Below the pieces are notes generated by a model. It searched no databases, was not told where the DNA came from, and was given only the letters and a program-made list of their open reading frames with translations. Source: Marmoricola sp. OAE513 (lineage in GTDB: Bacteria; Actinomycetota; Actinomycetes; Propionibacteriales; Nocardioidaceae). From it: DNA of 64,000 nucleotides. The stretch lies in contig NZ_JBEPOC010000001.1 of NCBI RefSeq assembly GCF_040546585.1, positions 868,001 to 932,000 of the forward strand, in the 5' to 3' direction. This document shows, piece by piece, positions 8,600 to 59,795 of the stretch (the first letter of the stretch is position 1; each line of letters starts with the position of its first letter). The position numbers and the translations under genes were made by a program.

Positions 8600-9091
8600 G
8601 TGTACGTCCAGACCTCCTACCTGCCGCAGGTCAAGGAGATCCGCGACCTCCTGACCGACCTCCTCGACCGGGACATCCAGGTGAGTCCGACACCCCCGCT
8701 GGCGCCGACCCCGAACAACCCGTGCACGGTCGCGGTGTACGTCGACGACACCCTCCAGGTGACCTCGGTGATCGCGTTCGACCTCCCGCTGTCGGCGTAC
8801 GCCGGCGCCGCCATCGGGCTGGTGCCCGCCGCCGGCGCGGAGACCGCGATCGAGGAGCGCGTCCTGAACCAGACGCTGCAGGAGAACGTCTACGAGGTGC
8901 TGAACATCGCCGCCTCGCTGTTCAACCACGACGGCGCCACCCACGTGCGCCTGTACGACGCCCACCACGTCGGAGCTCCGCTCCCCGGTGACGTGATGGC
9001 CCGCGCCCTGACGCTGGGCCGCCGCGAGGACCTGGCCGTCGAGGTCGGAGGCTACGGCGCCGGACGGCTGTCGGTCGTCCTCGTCGCGTAG
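8600..9091 (+). CDS. CheX/CheC-like protein
   Basis: 163 residues from a GTG 5 bp after the second cheY stop. I do not recognise it firmly. The segment ENVYEVLNIAASLFN resembles the Glu-x-x-Asn helix of CheC/CheX phosphatases, and the overall alpha/beta pattern and operon position fit a divergent member. The preceding gene of this type also follows a cheY gene, so the operon may hold two regulator/phosphatase pairs. The stop codon directly abuts the first copy of the dispersed repeat. A structural role instead of a phosphatase role is possible. Confidence 0.6.
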   Translation: MYVQTSYLPQVKEIRDLLTDLLDRDIQVSPTPPLAPTPNNPCTVAVYVDDTLQVTSVIAFDLPLSAYAGAAIGLVPAAGAETAIEERVLNQTLQENVYEVLNIAASLFNHDGATHVRLYDAHHVGAPLPGDVMARALTLGRREDLAVEVGGYGAGRLSVVLVA

Positions 9092-9093
9092 TC

Positions 9094-9355
9094 GGTCGTC
9101 GAGCTTGCCGAGACGTCTGAACCAAACCCGGTCGTCGAGCCTGCCGAGACGTGGCGAGGTCACTGGAGCACCGAGCCCCCGGTCGTCGAGCTTGCCGAGA
9201 CGTGGCGAGGTCACTGGAGCACCGAGCCCCCGGTCGTCGAGCTTGCCGAGACGTGGCGAGGTCACTGGAGCACCGAGCCCCCGGTCGTCGAGCTTGCCGA
9301 GACGTGGCGAGGTCACTGGAGCACCGAGCCCCCGGTCGTCGAGCTTGCCGAGACG
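9094..9355 (+). repeat. dispersed repeat copy plus 51-bp tandem array (4.4 units)
   Basis: One copy of the GGTCGTCGAGCTTGCCGAGA element starts at 9094. A tandem array follows with units starting at 9130, 9181, 9232, 9283 and 9334. The period is exactly 51 bp (17 codons) and the last unit stops after the core. Units 2-4 look identical; unit 1 differs by one base in the core (CCTGCC for CTTGCC). The array begins 2 bp after the CheX-like gene and supplies the C-terminal codons and stop of the GIY-YIG gene on the other strand. Confidence 0.95.
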
Positions 9356-9651
9356 TCGGAACCCGCACTGCGATCGGCCATGCTCCGGGACAGCTCGGGC
9401 AGGTCCTCCAGACGGCCCTCCATCAACGCCTCACGCTTGGCCCTGCTCCAGCCCTGGACCTGCTTCTCCCGCGCGTACGCCTCCTCGATCCGGTCGAACT
9501 GCTGCGACCACTTGAGGACAACCGGCCGGCGCTTGCGGGTGTACGCGGTGCCCTTGCCGAGGTTGTGCTCCTGGACCCGTGCTTCGAGGTTCGTCGTGCT
9601 TCCGACGTAGTAGGAACCGTCGACGCACTCGAGGATGTAGAGGTAGCCCAT
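9313..9651 (-). CDS. GIY-YIG nuclease family protein
   Basis: 112 residues from ATG 9651. The GIY-YIG core is at the N-terminus: MGYLYILECVDGSYYVGSTT (GIY and YIG strands), then the Arg of LEARVQEHN, and later EEAYAREKQVQGWSRAKREAL with the conserved Glu-bearing helix. Single-domain proteins of this type (URI/YhbQ-like) are presumed structure-specific DNA nucleases; no target is known. The last ~13 residues (VSASSTTGGSVLQ) and the stop are encoded by the flanking repeat array. Inverted copies of the same repeat lie just upstream of the start. It breaks the path between the chemotaxis and flgB operons on the opposite strand and has no FliA-type promoter. Confidence 0.85.
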   Translation of the reverse strand: MGYLYILECVDGSYYVGSTTNLEARVQEHNLGKGTAYTRKRRPVVLKWSQQFDRIEEAYAREKQVQGWSRAKREALMEGRLEDLPELSRSMADRSAGSDVSASSTTGGSVLQ

Positions 9652-9677
9652 CGGTCGAGGATGCGCCCAGGTCACCA

Positions 9678-9800
9678 CGTCTCGGCGGGCTCGACGACCG
9701 GGACTGTGGACTCCCCATGACAGTTCGCCGCTGTGGTCACCACGTCTCGGCAAGCTCGACGACCGGAGCGCCACCACGTCTCGGCAGGATCGACGACCGG
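9678..9800 (-). repeat. three inverted copies of the dispersed repeat
   Basis: Copies in the CGTCTCGGCAAGCTCGACGA orientation lie at 9678-9701, 9743-9766 and 9777-9800, upstream of the GIY-YIG start. Two differ from the commonest core by one or two bases. With the direct array at 9094-9355 they bracket the GIY-YIG gene in opposite orientations. Confidence 0.9.
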
Positions 9801-9832
9801 ACGGGACCAACGTCCTGAATCGGTAGCAATCG

Positions 9833-9861
9833 CTCAACCCCCTCCTCGAGGGACCGAAGAG
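9833..9861 (+). promoter_or_regulatory. FliA-type promoter for the flgB operon
   Basis: CTCA (9833-9836), 15-nt spacer, GACCGAAGAG (9852-9861). The predicted leader to flgB is about 62 nt and ends with a good GGAGG ribosome site. Confidence 0.65.
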
Positions 9862-9929
9862 TCACCCGAGCACGGATCGCTCACCCCACGCCACGGACTG
9901 GCACCGCTCCCGCGCAACCGGAGGCTCCC

Positions 9930-16176: not shown

Positions 16177-17138
16177 GCGTCACCGACGTCACCGCACGCA
16201 TCCAGCAGATCCAGTCCCAGCTGGCCATGCTCGCTCCGGCCGGCACGAGCAGCAGCTCGGCCACCGACTTCGCGGCCGCCCTGGACGGGGTCACCGACAG
16301 CACGGGGACCACCGGCACCGGCACGACCGGCGACATCCTGCCGAGCGGCAAGGCCGTGGTCACGGAGGCCCGCAAGTACCTCGGCCTCCCCTACGTCTGG
16401 GGCGGCACCGACCCGGACAAGGGTCTGGACTGCTCCGGCCTGGTCCAGCTCGTCTACAAGAACCTCGGCATCGACCTTCCCCGGCTCTCCGCTGACCAGG
16501 CCAAGGCGGGCACCAAGGTCGCCAGCATGGCCGAGGCCCAGCCCGGGGACCTGATCGCCTGGGACAACTCCAGCCGCAACAACGGCGCGGACCACATCGC
16601 GATCTACATCGGCGACGGCAAGATGATCGAGGCGCCGCGCACCGGCCTGAACGTGCGGATCGTGGACGTCCCTTCGACCCCGGACTACATCCGCCGGATC
16701 GTCCCCGCGGACGGCGTCGGAGCGGTCGGCGCCGCAGGCGGCGCCAGGGTTTCTGCGAGCACGCCGTACGCGAACCTGTTCACGGCCGCATCGGAGAAGT
16801 ACGGCGTCCCGGCGGCGCTGCTCTCCGCGGTCGCGAAGCAGGAGTCGGGGTACAACCCGAAGGCAGTCAGCCCGGCTGGAGCCCAGGGCCTGATGCAGCT
16901 GATGCCCGGCACCGCGAAGGGCCTCGGCGTGACCGACTCGTTCGACCCCAACCAGGCCGTTGACGGCGCGGCTCGGATGCTTCGGGACCTGACCAACCGG
17001 TTCGGCAGCACCAGCCTGGCGCTCGCGGCGTACAACGCCGGGCCCGGTGCGGTGATCAAGTACGACGGCATCCCGCCGTACCCGGAGACCCAGCGCTACG
17101 TCCGCAACGTGCTGTCGATGATGAAGGCGGCCTCATGA
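16173..17138 (+). CDS. bifunctional NlpC/P60 endopeptidase - lytic transglycosylase
   Basis: 321 residues from a GTG overlapping the fliJ stop. After a ~60-residue Ser/Thr/Gly-rich N-terminus comes an NlpC/P60 domain (about 62-170): catalytic Cys in GLDCSGLVQ and His in GADHIAIYIG. An SLT domain follows (about 195-320): catalytic Glu in KQESGYNPKA, then GLMQLMPGTA and the AYNAGPGAV motif. The two domains cut peptide stems and glycan strands of peptidoglycan respectively. No signal peptide is visible; the N-terminus may be recognised by the flagellar export apparatus. The gene takes the place where rod-cap muramidase FlgJ functions occur in other bacteria, so it probably opens the wall for the rod. 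Confidence 0.85.
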   Translation: MSVTDVTARIQQIQSQLAMLAPAGTSSSSATDFAAALDGVTDSTGTTGTGTTGDILPSGKAVVTEARKYLGLPYVWGGTDPDKGLDCSGLVQLVYKNLGIDLPRLSADQAKAGTKVASMAEAQPGDLIAWDNSSRNNGADHIAIYIGDGKMIEAPRTGLNVRIVDVPSTPDYIRRIVPADGVGAVGAAGGARVSASTPYANLFTAASEKYGVPAALLSAVAKQESGYNPKAVSPAGAQGLMQLMPGTAKGLGVTDSFDPNQAVDGAARMLRDLTNRFGSTSLALAAYNAGPGAVIKYDGIPPYPETQRYVRNVLSMMKAAS

Positions 17139-18493
17139 GCATCACTCCGCTCGCCACCGCGGTGCCGGCGGTCGCTCCCGCCGCGGGCGCCGGGGACACT
17201 GCTGCGCTCCCGGGAGACTTCCTGGCCGTCATCCAGGCTGCGATGTCGCAGGCGGCACCGGTCGTCGAGCAGCCTCCGGTCGTCGAGCTTGCCGAGACGT
17301 CCGCACCCGATCTCCCGACCCGTCCCCACCCCACCCAGAACTCCGTCGACGGGCCCACCCCGCCAGACGGCAACTCCGTCGACGGGCCCACCCCGACCGA
17401 CGGAACCCCTCCGTTGGTTGAGGAGGCTGGCCTCCAGCTCCCTCAACCAACGGGGGACCTCCCGATCGACCCCGCGCTGGCGGCCGTCATCGCCCAGGTG
17501 CCGTTCGTGGTGAGCGTCGCGGTACCGGTGGCTCACCGGGTCTCGACAAGCTCGACCACCGGAGACGGCTCGACCACCGGAGAGGGCTCGACCACCGGGG
17601 CGGGGTCGACCAACGCGAGGTCGACCACCGCCGCGAGCTCCGCCACCGAGCACGTCTCGGCAGGCTCAACACCCGAACTTCCTCAGGCTGCGCACTCCGC
17701 CGCCGATAGGCCCATCGCTGCACCGCACGCACCCGCGCGCGGGGCAGCCCACGATTCCGCGGTGGCGGGTACGACTCCTCCGACGACGGAACCGGCTTCT
17801 GTCCCCGCCGATGCCGGTACGCCGACGGCCCCTGTGCCCGCCACCGCGCTCCAGACTGCTGCACCGAGCGCAGCCCAGCACCACTCCGCTCTGCAGGCGA
17901 CCCCCGCGATCGCGTCCCCAGCACCCGTGGCCGCTGCCGCGACGCCGGCTCCGGTCGCGGGCACGACCCAGCTCGACCAGGTGGCCGCACAGGTCTTCCC
18001 GGAGGTCACCCAGCTGGTCAGCCGCGGCAACGGCACCCACCGGATCGCGCTGACCCTGAACCCCGAGCAGCTGGGCGAGGTCCGCGTGATCATGACGATG
18101 CGCGACGGGAACGTGCACGTCCGCCTCGCAGCGGGCCACGAGGCGAAGGCCTCCCTGCTCGACGGCTCCCCCGAGCTGGCGCGGCTCCTCGAGCACGCCG
18201 GCGCGAGCGAGGCCCGGGTCGTCGTACACGACCTCCCGGCCGGCCTCGCGAACAGCACCAGCACGACCAGCACTCCGACCAGCACCCTGAACGCGGGCGA
18301 CCCCGCGCTCGGCGGTGACCGGTCCCCCGATCAGCACGCAGGGACGCGTGCCGACCAGCACACGGCCAAGGACGGCTCCGACCAGACCTCGAGGTCCACC
18401 CGGACCTCAGGAACGACCGCAACGGGGATCACCCCGCGGTCGATCGAGCCGGTCATCGGCACCCGCGTCGCGGGCGTCGACCTGACCATGTGA
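17135..18493 (+). CDS. fliK: FliK, flagellar hook-length control protein
   Basis: 452 residues. The C-terminal Flg_hook domain is clear (about 285-375: RIALTLNPEQLGEVRVIM, then DGSPELARLLEHAGASEARV). The N-terminal 280 residues are low-complexity Ala/Pro/Thr, as expected of the molecular ruler part. They include stretches encoded by dispersed repeats (PVVELAETS; VSTSSTTGDGSTTG; HVSAGSTPE) and a duplicated NSVDGPTP block. FliK measures hook length and switches export from hook to filament proteins. Start overlaps the preceding stop. Confidence 0.88.
   Translation: MSITPLATAVPAVAPAAGAGDTAALPGDFLAVIQAAMSQAAPVVEQPPVVELAETSAPDLPTRPHPTQNSVDGPTPPDGNSVDGPTPTDGTPPLVEEAGLQLPQPTGDLPIDPALAAVIAQVPFVVSVAVPVAHRVSTSSTTGDGSTTGEGSTTGAGSTNARSTTAASSATEHVSAGSTPELPQAAHSAADRPIAAPHAPARGAAHDSAVAGTTPPTTEPASVPADAGTPTAPVPATALQTAAPSAAQHHSALQATPAIASPAPVAAAATPAPVAGTTQLDQVAAQVFPEVTQLVSRGNGTHRIALTLNPEQLGEVRVIMTMRDGNVHVRLAAGHEAKASLLDGSPELARLLEHAGASEARVVVHDLPAGLANSTSTTSTPTSTLNAGDPALGGDRSPDQHAGTRADQHTAKDGSDQTSRSTRTSGTTATGITPRSIEPVIGTRVAGVDLTM
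17276..17675 (+). repeat. repeat-rich stretch inside fliK
   Basis: It holds a perfect copy of the 24-bp dispersed repeat (17276-17299) and a 33-bp in-frame tandem duplication (AACTCCGTCGACGGGCCCAC at 17339 and 17372). A long near-perfect hairpin spans 17411-17453, with arms CCGTTGGTTGAGG / CCTCAACCAACGG. Two inverted variants of the dispersed repeat follow (17541-17562, 17653-17675). All keep the fliK frame. Confidence 0.85.
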
Positions 18494-25102: not shown

Positions 25103-25158
25103 CCGGTCGTCGAGCTTGCCGACACGGTCCCAGACGTCTCGGCAAGCTCGACGACCGG
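25103..25158. repeat. inverted pair of the dispersed repeat (fliL-fliM gap)
   Basis: Perfect 20-bp arms (CCGGTCGTCGAGCTTGCCGA at 25103-25122 and its complement at 25139-25158) with a 16-nt loop. The first arm begins 4 bp after the fliL stop. In RNA it would form a strong hairpin, so it may also terminate the flbD-fliL transcript before the fliM promoter. Confidence 0.92.
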
Positions 25159-25202: not shown

Positions 25203-26171
25203 GTGAGCTTCCTTGCGTCCGCCCCCGGGCAGCTGTCCGCACCCCGATCCGGGTCTGCGGGCGCCCGCACGCGCCGTCGTTCGGGCGCTGAACCGGTCGC
25301 CTACGACTTCCGGCGCCCGATCCAGCTCTCCCGTGAGCACTCCCGCATCCTGCAGCTCGGGTACGACGGCTTCGCGCGCCAGGCGACCACGGTGTTCACC
25401 TCCTCGCTGCGCACCGTGTGCGGGGTGGCCCTCTCCTCGATCGAGCAGCGCAGCTACGCCGAGTACGTCGACTCGCTGGACGCCTCGACGTACCTGACCC
25501 TCTTCGCCGCCGACCCGATGCCGGGGTTGGGCGTGCTGGAAATTCCGCTGCCGGCCACGATGGCGTGCGTCGACCACATGCTCGGCGGGCCCGGCAACGC
25601 CGACCAGCCGCAGCGGCCGCTGACCGAGATCGAGGGCGGCGTCATCGGCGGCTTGATCGAGCGGCTGCTCTCGGAGATGCGCTACTCGCTGGCGGGCATC
25701 GTCCCGCTGGAGCCGACCGTCACCGGGATCGAGTACAGCCCCCAGTTCGCCCAGGTCGCCGGCGCCGCGGACGTCATGGTGGTCGCGACCTTCGACCTCC
25801 GCGTCGACGAGACCGCGCACAAGATGACGGTCTGCCTTCCGTTCAGCGGCCTGCTCCCCCACCTGGCCACCGCAGCCGCGCCGGCTCCGGCCTCGGACCG
25901 CGAGCGCGCCAAGCGGGCCCAGGCCGCCGAGCTGCTCCAGGCCCAGTTCGCCCAGGTGCCGATGGATGTGGCCGTGCGGTTCCGCTCGACCCGGCTCGCC
26001 CCCGACGCCCTGGCCGAGCTCCAGCCCGGCGACGTCGTCCGGCTGGCCCACCCCGCTTCAGCGCCGCTCGACGTCACGGTCGACGACACCACCTTCGCGC
26101 ACGCCACCGCCGGCGCCCAGGGACAGCGGCTCGCTGCCCTGATCGTCGGCACCCGTAAGGAGATCCGATGA
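25203..26171 (+). CDS. fliM: FliM, flagellar motor switch protein
   Basis: 322 residues. The FliM core begins around residue 33 (YDFRRPIQLSREHSRILQLGYDGF) and contains GLGVLEIPLPATMACVDHMLGGPG. A C-terminal SpoA-type domain covers about 245-320. The N-terminal peptide that binds CheY-P in other FliM proteins (LSQxEID-like) is not evident; the N-terminus is Ser/Arg/Gly-rich instead. The GTG start is 12 nt after the promoter core and no Shine-Dalgarno is visible. It overlaps fliN by 4 bp. Confidence 0.92.
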   Translation: MSFLASAPGQLSAPRSGSAGARTRRRSGAEPVAYDFRRPIQLSREHSRILQLGYDGFARQATTVFTSSLRTVCGVALSSIEQRSYAEYVDSLDASTYLTLFAADPMPGLGVLEIPLPATMACVDHMLGGPGNADQPQRPLTEIEGGVIGGLIERLLSEMRYSLAGIVPLEPTVTGIEYSPQFAQVAGAADVMVVATFDLRVDETAHKMTVCLPFSGLLPHLATAAAPAPASDRERAKRAQAAELLQAQFAQVPMDVAVRFRSTRLAPDALAELQPGDVVRLAHPASAPLDVTVDDTTFAHATAGAQGQRLAALIVGTRKEIR

Positions 26172-27022
26172 CCACGTCCCCCACGTCCAACCCCGTCGGC
26201 GCCGACCTCGCCCTGGCCGCCGCCAGCGCGGCCGCCGCCGTGCTGCCCTCGGTCGACCCGCTTGTCGCCGCCGGGGCGCAGCCGGGCAACGAGCACGTCA
26301 CCGCCGCCTTCTCCGGTGCCGCGATCGCCGAGCTCGACGGTGGTCTCTCGGGACGGATCGCCGTTCTCGTCGGGGACGAGCTCACCGGGGCGCTCGCGTC
26401 CAGCCCGATCGAGGGCCTCGACCTCGCTGCCGCGACCCAGCCCGCGCTGGACGCCGCGGCTGCGGTGCTCGGCGGGGCCGCGAAGGCGGCGCGCACCGTC
26501 GAGCTCGACCTGGTCATCTCCGACCTGGGCGACGACTTCACCGTCGTCCCGCTCATCGGTGCCGGGATCGCTGCGTCGGTGCTCATCCAGGACCACCTGC
26601 TCGAGGGCGGCGGTCCGTTGGTTGCGCCTGTCGAAGCCCCCGCACCCGTGACTCCGGTCGTCGAGCAGCCTTCGGTGGTCGAGCGGCCTTCGGTGGTCGA
26701 GCTTGCCGAGACCCCGGACATCTCGGCAAGCTCGATGACCGGGGGCACCGACGCGGTCGTCACGCCGCTTCCCCGCCGCGGCATCGAGATGCTGCACGGC
26801 GTCGACATGGAGGTGACCGTCGAGCTGGGTCGCACCCGGATGACCGTGCGCGACCTGCTCGCGATGACCCCGGGCGCCGTGCTCGAGCTGGACCGTGCGG
26901 CCGGCAGTCCCGCCGACCTGCTCGTCAACGGTCGGCTGATCGCCCGCGGCGAGGTCGTCGTGGTCGACGAGGACTTCGGCCTGCGGGTCACCGAGATCAT
27001 CGACGACAGCTCGGCCGGCTGA
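26168..27022 (+). CDS. fliN: FliN/FliY-like flagellar switch protein with CheC-like N-terminal domain
   Basis: 284 residues, twice the size of a minimal FliN. The C-terminal ~80 residues are the SpoA/FliN domain (MLHGVDMEVTVELGRTRM, then VNGRLIARGEVVVVDEDFGLRV). The N-terminal ~155 residues resemble the CheC/FliY fold, but the Glu-x-x-Asn phosphatase helices are not obvious, so catalysis is doubtful. The domains are joined by a Pro/Val linker encoded largely by copies of the dispersed repeat (VVEQPSVVERPSVVELAET). It forms the lower rotor ring. Confidence 0.88.
   Translation: MTTSPTSNPVGADLALAAASAAAAVLPSVDPLVAAGAQPGNEHVTAAFSGAAIAELDGGLSGRIAVLVGDELTGALASSPIEGLDLAAATQPALDAAAAVLGGAAKAARTVELDLVISDLGDDFTVVPLIGAGIAASVLIQDHLLEGGGPLVAPVEAPAPVTPVVEQPSVVERPSVVELAETPDISASSMTGGTDAVVTPLPRRGIEMLHGVDMEVTVELGRTRMTVRDLLAMTPGAVLELDRAAGSPADLLVNGRLIARGEVVVVDEDFGLRVTEIIDDSSAG
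26654..26740. repeat. dispersed repeat copies inside fliN linker
   Basis: Three direct degenerate copies (GGTCGTCGAG / GGTGGTCGAG blocks starting near 26656, 26674 and 26692), then one inverted copy. A 15-bp perfect inverted pair lies at 26697-26711 and 26721-26735. The reading frame is kept, giving VVELAET on the direct side and ISASSMTGG on the inverted side. Confidence 0.88.
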
Positions 27023-59750: not shown

Positions 59751-59774
59751 CCGGTCGTCGAGCTTGCCGAGACG
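59751..59774 (+). repeat. dispersed repeat, single perfect copy
   Basis: The full CCGGTCGTCGAGCTTGCCGA plus GACG element, between the F420-oxidoreductase gene and the convergent TetR gene. Confidence 0.9.
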
Positions 59775-59795
59775 CGGCGACCACAGCGCTCGAGC

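What the first reader, a model, noticed from the sequence alone, without database searches (positions are those of the whole stretch)
9094..9800. GIY-YIG nuclease gene bracketed by opposite arrays of a dispersed repeat
The nuclease gene has a five-core direct array plus one extra copy on one side and three inverted copies on the other. The repeat even encodes the protein's last residues and stop. The same repeat is scattered through the window in intergenic and coding DNA. This resembles the relation of RAYT transposases to REP elements, but with a GIY-YIG enzyme. It is my best candidate for an undescribed system: a nuclease that may maintain, cut or spread the repeat.
Basis: partly seen in the sequence, partly recalled or inferred. 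Interest (0 to 1): 0.8.

Follow-up and report, generated by a model that had tools for sequence, protein, structure and literature searches.

The report
Nuclease matched to its own hairpin repeats
A small DNA-cutting enzyme is bracketed by, and matched in sequence to, a short hairpin-like repeat scattered through its genome; the same pairing, with its own repeat type each time, recurs in several bacterial phyla.

Summary
A 112-aa GIY-YIG nuclease (window 9313-9651, minus strand) lies between six plus and three minus copies of a 23-bp repeat. The genome holds 246 copies of its 21-base core (up to 3 mismatches), against 4 for the reversed pattern. The pairing is general: 70 of 90 family nuclease loci examined (not a random sample) are bracketed by inverted repeats, against 37 of 792 control placements. 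The genome's second such nuclease is bracketed by a different repeat. At least 20 repeats occur in 34 of 157 genomes with the nuclease and 3 of 137 without. The repeat is an imperfect hairpin with covarying stem and apical pair. Its caps fall into classes, and one residue of the nuclease's C-terminal helix (90 here) tracks the class across phyla (identical in 134 of 304 same-cap, different-phylum pairs; 1 of 290 different-cap, same-phylum pairs). This supports recognition of the repeat, probably as folded single-stranded DNA. By recall this is the Ssn kind known from Neisseria (paper not held, not read); cutting was not tested. RAYT-like copying is not shown. New as far as I could search: the hairpin/cap anatomy, the residue-cap match, paralogues with separate repeats.

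The parts
9313..9651 (-). GIY-YIG nuclease A, 112 aa, ATG start at 9651; residue 90 = Ser
   Evidence: PF01541 E 2.6e-19; Y5, Y15, G17, R25, H29, E62 invariant in the 52 aligned sequences
9094..9116 (+). extra repeat copy, 0 mismatches
9130..9152 (+). array copy 1 (1 mismatch)
9181..9203 (+). array copy 2
9232..9254 (+). array copy 3
9283..9305 (+). array copy 4
9334..9356 (+). array copy 5; on the minus strand encodes nuclease residues 99-106
9677..9699 (-). inverted copy 1, upstream of the gene (2 mismatches)
9742..9764 (-). inverted copy 2 (0 mismatches)
9776..9798 (-). inverted copy 3 (2 mismatches)
17278..17300 (+). dispersed copy inside a fliK gene
   Evidence: PF02120
25105..25127 (+). 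dispersed inverted pair after a stop codon, left half
25134..25156 (-). dispersed inverted pair, right half
26692..26714 (+). inverted pair inside a FliN-type gene (26168-27022), left half
   Evidence: PF01052
26718..26740 (-). inverted pair inside a FliN-type gene, right half
59753..59775 (+). dispersed copy 28 nt after the stop of a luciferase-like monooxygenase gene
   Evidence: PF00296

Best explanation
A nuclease and its own dispersed recognition element. The repeat is an imperfect hairpin: a variable paired stem, then GAG ... CGA (positions where tandem G-A mismatches could form), an apical base pair with a cap, and usually an unpaired T before CGA. Most likely the small GIY-YIG enzyme binds this element when it is single-stranded and folded, and nicks it; the helix at its C-terminus (residue 90 and neighbours) reads the apical pair or cap. 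Each nuclease is matched to one repeat type, so two paralogues in this genome (A in the window, B at 1.586 Mb) have different repeats. The dispersed copies then act as cut or processing sites on single-stranded DNA, during DNA uptake, recombination or lagging-strand synthesis. Shown: bracket, copy-number association, hairpin covariation, residue-cap association. Inferred: binding, single-strand specificity, nicking, and the cellular role.
For: Inverted bracket in 33 of 75 loci against 167 of 4862 control placements after masking parS-like palindromes (38 of 75 and 172 of 4862 unmasked), and in 70 of 90 family loci against 37 of 792. Copy number: at least 20 repeats in 34 of 157 genomes with the nuclease and 3 of 137 without, Mann-Whitney p 2.8e-11; in the window's genus the 9 genomes without it have at most 9 copies. 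Stem pairing in 295 elements from loci not labelled actinobacterial: 75-80% at positions 1-4, shuffled means 31-66%. Apical pair, not used for selection: 89% of 284 against 37% shuffled; all 946: 79% against 36%; far DNA 39% of 712 against 31%. Residue 90: identical in 134 of 304 same-cap, different-phylum pairs and 1 of 290 different-cap, same-phylum pairs; it is the top of 56 columns and 0 of 300 within-phylum label shuffles reached it. Genome-wide: the GYTC-type core reaches 4 copies in 13 of 16 genomes whose nuclease locus has GYTC-type caps and 0 of 18 with CYTG caps. Prediction met: a genome rich in the B-type repeat (G130, 98 copies at up to 1 mismatch) has its nuclease bracketed by six plus and one minus copy. 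Residue 90 lies in predicted helix 81-96.
Against: No cutting or binding was tested. Of six elements folded, two beat all 200 shuffles; the window's own does not stand out (z 0.76; 157 of 200 shuffles as good), nor do B (49 of 200) or the G231 element (140 of 200). Genomes rich in repeats without a nuclease found: G212 (101), G232 (37, single contig), G050 (20), and G184 (30 of another type). G212's two further weak GIY-YIG hits are unlike nuclease A and not bracketed. 20 of 90 family loci and 42 of 75 of the wider set show no bracket by my scores. CYTG-type cores are also common in many genomes of the GYTC class. B and the G130 enzyme have Gly at 90, not the Cys of the four other GNA-class enzymes. 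A bracketed Sphingomonas plasmid homologue has a tail that does not fit (by eye). Of the 290 control pairs 237 are within Bacteroidota and 48 within actinobacteria (from the class counts), so independent switches are few; the association could reflect co-inheritance rather than contact.
Confidence: 0.62

Rival explanations
1. RAYT-like: the nuclease mobilises or copies the repeats, so repeats are its non-autonomous mobile elements and the bracketed gene is the autonomous one.
For: Elements fall in density from 3-7 per kb within 1 kb of the nuclease to 0.01 per kb at 40-100 kb in three related genomes; 18 of 53 exact copies in G247 lie within about 11 kb of the gene. Presence/absence differences at orthologous sites between G283 and G247. 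In G126 a bracketed nuclease sits in the middle of a DUF222/HNH-like gene whose homologue in G233 is uninterrupted.
Against: No such gradient in G040, G130 and G233, and G023 has two elements only (short-cap elements counted). The three genomes with a gradient share ancestry. No target duplication or clean junction was seen (by eye). I recall no strand-transfer function for a GIY-YIG nuclease. Tandem arrays not beside a PF01541 gene exist in the same genome (L267), so duplication can be host-driven.
Confidence: 0.2
2. Selfish homing cassette: the nuclease cuts repeat-bearing DNA and the repeat arms around its gene let it be copied into the break by recombination.
For: The cassette with both arms is present or absent as a unit at one site: 763 bp in G263 against 133 bp in G259. 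Genomes often hold several nuclease copies, up to five.
Against: Same-genome copies compared are mostly 69-79% identical in DNA over the gene, L130/L131 at 86% being the exception, and often have different brackets, so they are not recent copies. The nuclease's own brackets would be cut too. G259's site looks like loss with repeat scraps left (by eye).
Confidence: 0.12
3. The repeats are ordinary host elements (terminators, nucleoid or recombination sites) and the nuclease gene is merely a place where arrays are tolerated.
For: Repeats also occur far from the nuclease, after stop codons and as inverted pairs; some genomes have repeats and no nuclease found.
Against: Bracketing far above control placements, copy-number association, residue-cap match across phyla.
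Confidence: 0.06

Closest known systems
Ssn, site-specific single-stranded GIY-YIG endonucleases (Neisseria; recalled, paper not held and not read)
   Same: Small GIY-YIG enzyme; dispersed cognate repeats in large number; by recall many homologues each with a matching sequence
   Different: Single-strand cutting not tested here; Neisseria repeat and protein not compared; this report adds two paralogues with separate repeats, the hairpin/cap anatomy and the residue-cap match
UPF0213 proteins (1zg2 BH0048, 1ywl EF2693)
   Same: Closest solved relatives by sequence (E 2.5e-15 and 9.2e-13) and by fold
   Different: No function given in their names; repeats around their genes not examined
RAYT transposases with REP/REPIN elements
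   Same: One gene flanked by a short imperfect palindrome that is dispersed through the genome; some inverted pairs
   Different: RAYT are REP-associated tyrosine transposases (title of PMC2817692 in the listing; HUH class recalled); this is PF01541, and copying is not shown
Slx1-Slx4 structure-selective GIY-YIG nuclease
   Same: GIY-YIG fold match (7cq3, Foldseek E 0.019); acts on branched DNA (entry titles)
   Different: Two-protein complex; dispersed cognate repeats are not known to me for it (recalled)

Membership tests
Ssn (recalled) | GIY-YIG catalytic domain with intact core residues | tested here: met
   PF01541 E 2.6e-19; Y5, Y15, G17, R25, H29, E62 invariant in 52 sequences
Ssn (recalled) | Cognate sequence present in many copies in the genome | tested here: met
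   134 + 112 matches against 2 + 2 for the reversed pattern
Ssn (recalled) | Cuts single-stranded DNA only, at the cognate sequence | not testable with these tools
   needs an enzyme assay
Ssn (recalled) | Sequence relation to the Neisseria enzyme and its repeat | not tested
   paper not found; no Neisseria genome examined
Ssn (recalled) | Affects natural transformation | not testable with these tools
   no genetics; competence genes not searched
RAYT/REP | Y1 (HUH) transposase domain (recalled) | tested here: not met
   only Pfam match at E 0.001 is PF01541
RAYT/REP | Gene flanked by the dispersed imperfect palindrome | tested here: met
RAYT/REP | Tetranucleotide tag at one end of the repeat | not tested
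   tags named in the title of PMC3733652 (listing)
UPF0213-like GIY-YIG proteins | Sequence similarity over the domain | tested here: met
   1zg2 E 2.5e-15, 1ywl E 9.2e-13
Known anti-phage defence families (PADLOC-DB 2.0.0) | Match to a model | tested here: not met
   0 families for A and B at E 0.001
Rfam RNA families | Match to a covariance model | tested here: not met
   window 9000-9900, 0 matches up to E 1

The most novel reading that the evidence does not exclude
A phylum-spanning set of self-specified nuclease and hairpin pairs with a readable recognition code: one residue of the C-terminal helix (mostly A for a G-C apical pair, N or S for C-G, C or G for C-GNA-G triloops, K or R for long caps) helps decide which hairpin is recognised, and the nuclease is needed to keep its own repeat intact and abundant, so that copies erode when it is lost.
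Probability: 0.3. Interest if true: 0.85.

Novelty: new variant of a known kind. Interest (0 to 1): 0.65.

Why it matters
If the residue-cap match is a true code, one could predict from a nuclease's sequence which repeat a genome carries, and obtain a panel of site-specific enzymes for folded single-stranded DNA. It would also give a partner protein to a class of short dispersed repeats (cores such as TTCGACAAGCTCA and TTCGAGAGCCTCA) seen here in actinobacteria, Bacteroidota, Chloroflexota and others, and make their maintenance testable by deleting one small gene.

Tried and rejected
CRISPR-like array: rejected; the copies are dispersed on both strands and the array spacers are nearly identical. 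An Rfam RNA: no match. Known defence gene: no PADLOC match; no NCBIfam match. Phage or plasmid gene: 24 plasmid and 23 phage records match, all under 60% identity; 3 of the plasmid and none of the phage records cover 80%. Part of the first bracket count was not the repeat: five loci (L007, L035, L038, L059, L061) counted through a parS-like palindrome and drop out when it is masked. A general density gradient around the nuclease: seen in three related genomes, not in G040, G130 or G233. That 171 of 171 flanks hold a loose element is not used as evidence, because the loose pattern also occurs about once per kb far away (712 in 709 kb). My crude gene caller (38 intergenic, 17 coding, 1 edge) is unreliable: it called the fliK site intergenic. 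The strand skew suggested by the listing is an effect of the truncated list (counts are 134 and 112). Nearest-neighbour agreement of cap class and protein within the family alone was inside the shuffles (66 of 79, shuffled maximum 70), so the residue match rests on the cross-phylum set. One Pfam query (26167-27022) was out of frame; the corrected one is. Literature: searches listed no paper on such nucleases and repeats; most subscription papers are not held.

Full report
WHAT IS THERE. The window is G000:C1:868001-932000 of a single-contig genome of 3,890,914 bases. A 112-aa GIY-YIG nuclease (A) lies at 9313-9651 on the minus strand (PF01541, E 2.6e-19). Six plus copies of GGTCGTCGAGCTTGCCGAGACGT lie on one side, five of them in a 51-bp tandem array, and three minus copies on the other. 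The two sides face each other. The window has 15 matches at up to 3 mismatches and none in 100 shuffles. Genome-wide a 21-base version has 134 forward and 112 reverse matches; the reversed pattern has 2 and 2.

A SECOND NUCLEASE WITH ITS OWN REPEAT. The genome has four PF01541 matches: A, a paralogue B at 1.586 Mb, and two weaker ones (E 1.1e-12 and 3.6e-7) in longer open frames. B is bracketed by facing copies of another repeat, GGTGGTCGAGCGTAGTCGAGACC, and its 3.2-kb locus has no repeat-A match within 3 mismatches.

GENERALITY. With A and B added, 75 of 82 loci have at least 300 bp on both sides. Of these, 38 share inverted 13-mers across the gene, against 172 of 4862 control placements in the same loci. 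Five of the 38 did so through a parS-like palindrome; masked, the counts are 33 of 75 and 167 of 4862. In the window's family I examined 90 loci: 30 returned with the search, including the window's own, and 60 chosen by me from the listing, favouring multi-copy and repeat-rich genomes, so not a random sample. Of these, 70 of 90 have an inverted match of score 15 or more, against 37 of 792 controls; by the masked 13-mer test it is 77 of 90 against 66 of 554. Elements upstream are mostly on the gene's strand (175 against 80) and downstream mostly opposite (157 against 102). In 44 of 169 reading frames an element overlaps the last 45 nt or the stop.

COPY NUMBER. In the same 294 family genomes, 157 have the nuclease at E 1e-8 or better. 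Repeat A (up to 3 mismatches) reaches 20 copies in 34 of 157 with and 3 of 137 without; Mann-Whitney p 2.8e-11. In the window's genus (15 with, 9 without) the largest count without is 9. The exceptions are G212 (101), G232 (37) and G050 (20). A PF01541 search of them gives the two weaker matches that G000 also has; two further weak hits in G212 were fetched and are unlike A, with no bracket. The genomes are related, and the p-values do not allow for that.

COGNATE REPEATS BY GENOME. Pattern B at up to 1 mismatch occurs in 6 of 294 genomes: G130 98, G000 8, G262 4, G110 2, G053 1, G264 1; all six carry the nuclease. I then fetched G130's nuclease locus: six plus copies and one minus copy of GGTGGTCGAGCGAAGTCGAGACC bracket the gene. 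The bracket repeat of G231 occurs 13 times there, 30 times in G184, where no nuclease was found, and once each in 12 others.

ANATOMY. The elements share Y-GAG-S-cap-S'-T-CGA-R inside a variable stem. In 295 elements (distinct within a locus) from 59 loci not labelled actinobacterial, stem positions 1-4 pair in 75-80%, with shuffled means 31-66%. The apical pair S-S', not used to select elements, pairs in 89% of 284 (shuffled 37%) and in 79% of all 946 (36%); far from the gene 39% of 712 (31%). Cap classes are CYTG, GYTC, C-GNA-G and long hairpins. By recall, tandem G-A pairs and GNA triloops are stable in single-stranded DNA. The folding program gave two of six elements clear stability over shuffles, and the window's element none.

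RESIDUE-CAP MATCH. In 59 cross-phylum loci with one clear cap class (21 of the 80 were left out for want of one, of a phylum label or of a clean frame), the column at A's residue 90 reads A 15/R 2 for GYTC-like caps, N 14/S 9/C 2/P 1/G 1 for CYTG, C 4 for GNA and K 10/R 1 for long caps. It is identical in 134 of 304 same-cap, different-phylum pairs and in 1 of 290 different-cap, same-phylum pairs, the one being L025 and L033. It is the top of 56 columns, and 0 of 300 within-phylum label shuffles reach it. Of the 290 pairs 237 are within Bacteroidota and 48 within actinobacteria. Nuclease A has Ser 90 and a CYTG-type cap (CTTGC); B and the G130 enzyme have Gly there and C-GNA-G caps, so the GNA group is not uniform. 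In the family alone the class agreement of nearest neighbours was not above shuffles. The AlphaFold2 model (pLDDT 88.8) puts residue 90 in helix 81-96, where confidence is falling. Across 42 whole genomes (43 asked, one not held), TGAGGYTCTCGAA reaches 4 copies in 13 of 16 genomes of the GYTC class and 0 of 18 of the CYTG class (p 6e-7); TGAGCYTGTCGAA is common in both. The GNA core is higher in the 5 GNA genomes than in those 34 (p 0.013).

LOSS AND DECAY. In a clade with a shared locus (G243, G247, G249, G253, G263, G283), the close relative G259 lacks the nuclease and both arms: 763 bp of L161 (2276-3038) stand against 133 bp. In 200-kb stretches around the site the core motif occurs 35, 39 and 28 times in G263, G283 and G247 and 2 times in G259; reversed controls 0-1. 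Of 14 G263 sites with matched flanks in G259, none keeps the full motif and 3 keep a copy with 1-3 mismatches; against G283 it is 14 of 17 and against G247 9 of 17 at the same limit. Sites turn over with the nuclease present too: 11 of 16 G283 sites keep a copy in G247 at 95% flank identity. Flank identity is a little lower for G259 (87.6% against about 90%), this is one comparison, and the order of events was not established.

GRADIENT. In G263, G283 and G247 element density falls from 3-7 per kb near the gene to 0.01 per kb at 40-100 kb. It is not seen in G040, G130 and G233, and G023 has only two short-cap elements.

MECHANISM. The facts fit an enzyme that recognises its own hairpin. Single-strand nicking is the most likely activity because the conserved features are those of a folded strand, and by recall the Ssn family does this. 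Why a genome would keep hundreds of targets is open: control of recombination or uptake, or spread of the element by the nuclease. I put 0.62 on the cognate single-strand nuclease model and 0.2 on RAYT-like spread.

LITERATURE. Nine word searches gave listings only; I opened no paper. Sequence cores of the repeat were found in 16 papers, none about such repeats by title. The Ssn work is recalled, not read.

Noticed in passing
L161 (G263) at 2262 and 2942; L007, L035, L059, L061: In the G263 clade and four Microbacteriaceae loci the nuclease lies between copies of GTTTCACGTGAAAC, which by recall is the parS site for ParB.
   Followed up: partly
L130 and L131 (G126): The bracketed nuclease of L130 sits in the middle of a DUF222/HNH-like gene; a homologue in G233 (L299) is uninterrupted (family name recalled).
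   Followed up: partly
G000:C1:3081000-3084500 (L267): Arrays of repeat A on both strands (periods about 45-48 bp), not beside a PF01541 match of this genome.
   Followed up: partly
window 17135-18493 and 26168-27022: Repeats read in frame, without stop codons, inside a FliK gene and inside a FliN-type gene; in the latter both orientations occur.
   Followed up: partly
G013:C1:1391976-1392735: Two nuclease genes in tandem on the same strand, about 140 bp apart.
   Followed up: no
L285 (Sphingomonas parapaucimobilis plasmid NZ_CP155752.1): A bracketed homologue between nrdR and an RNA methyltransferase gene, with GNA-type elements by eye; its tail does not follow the residue pattern.
   Followed up: partly
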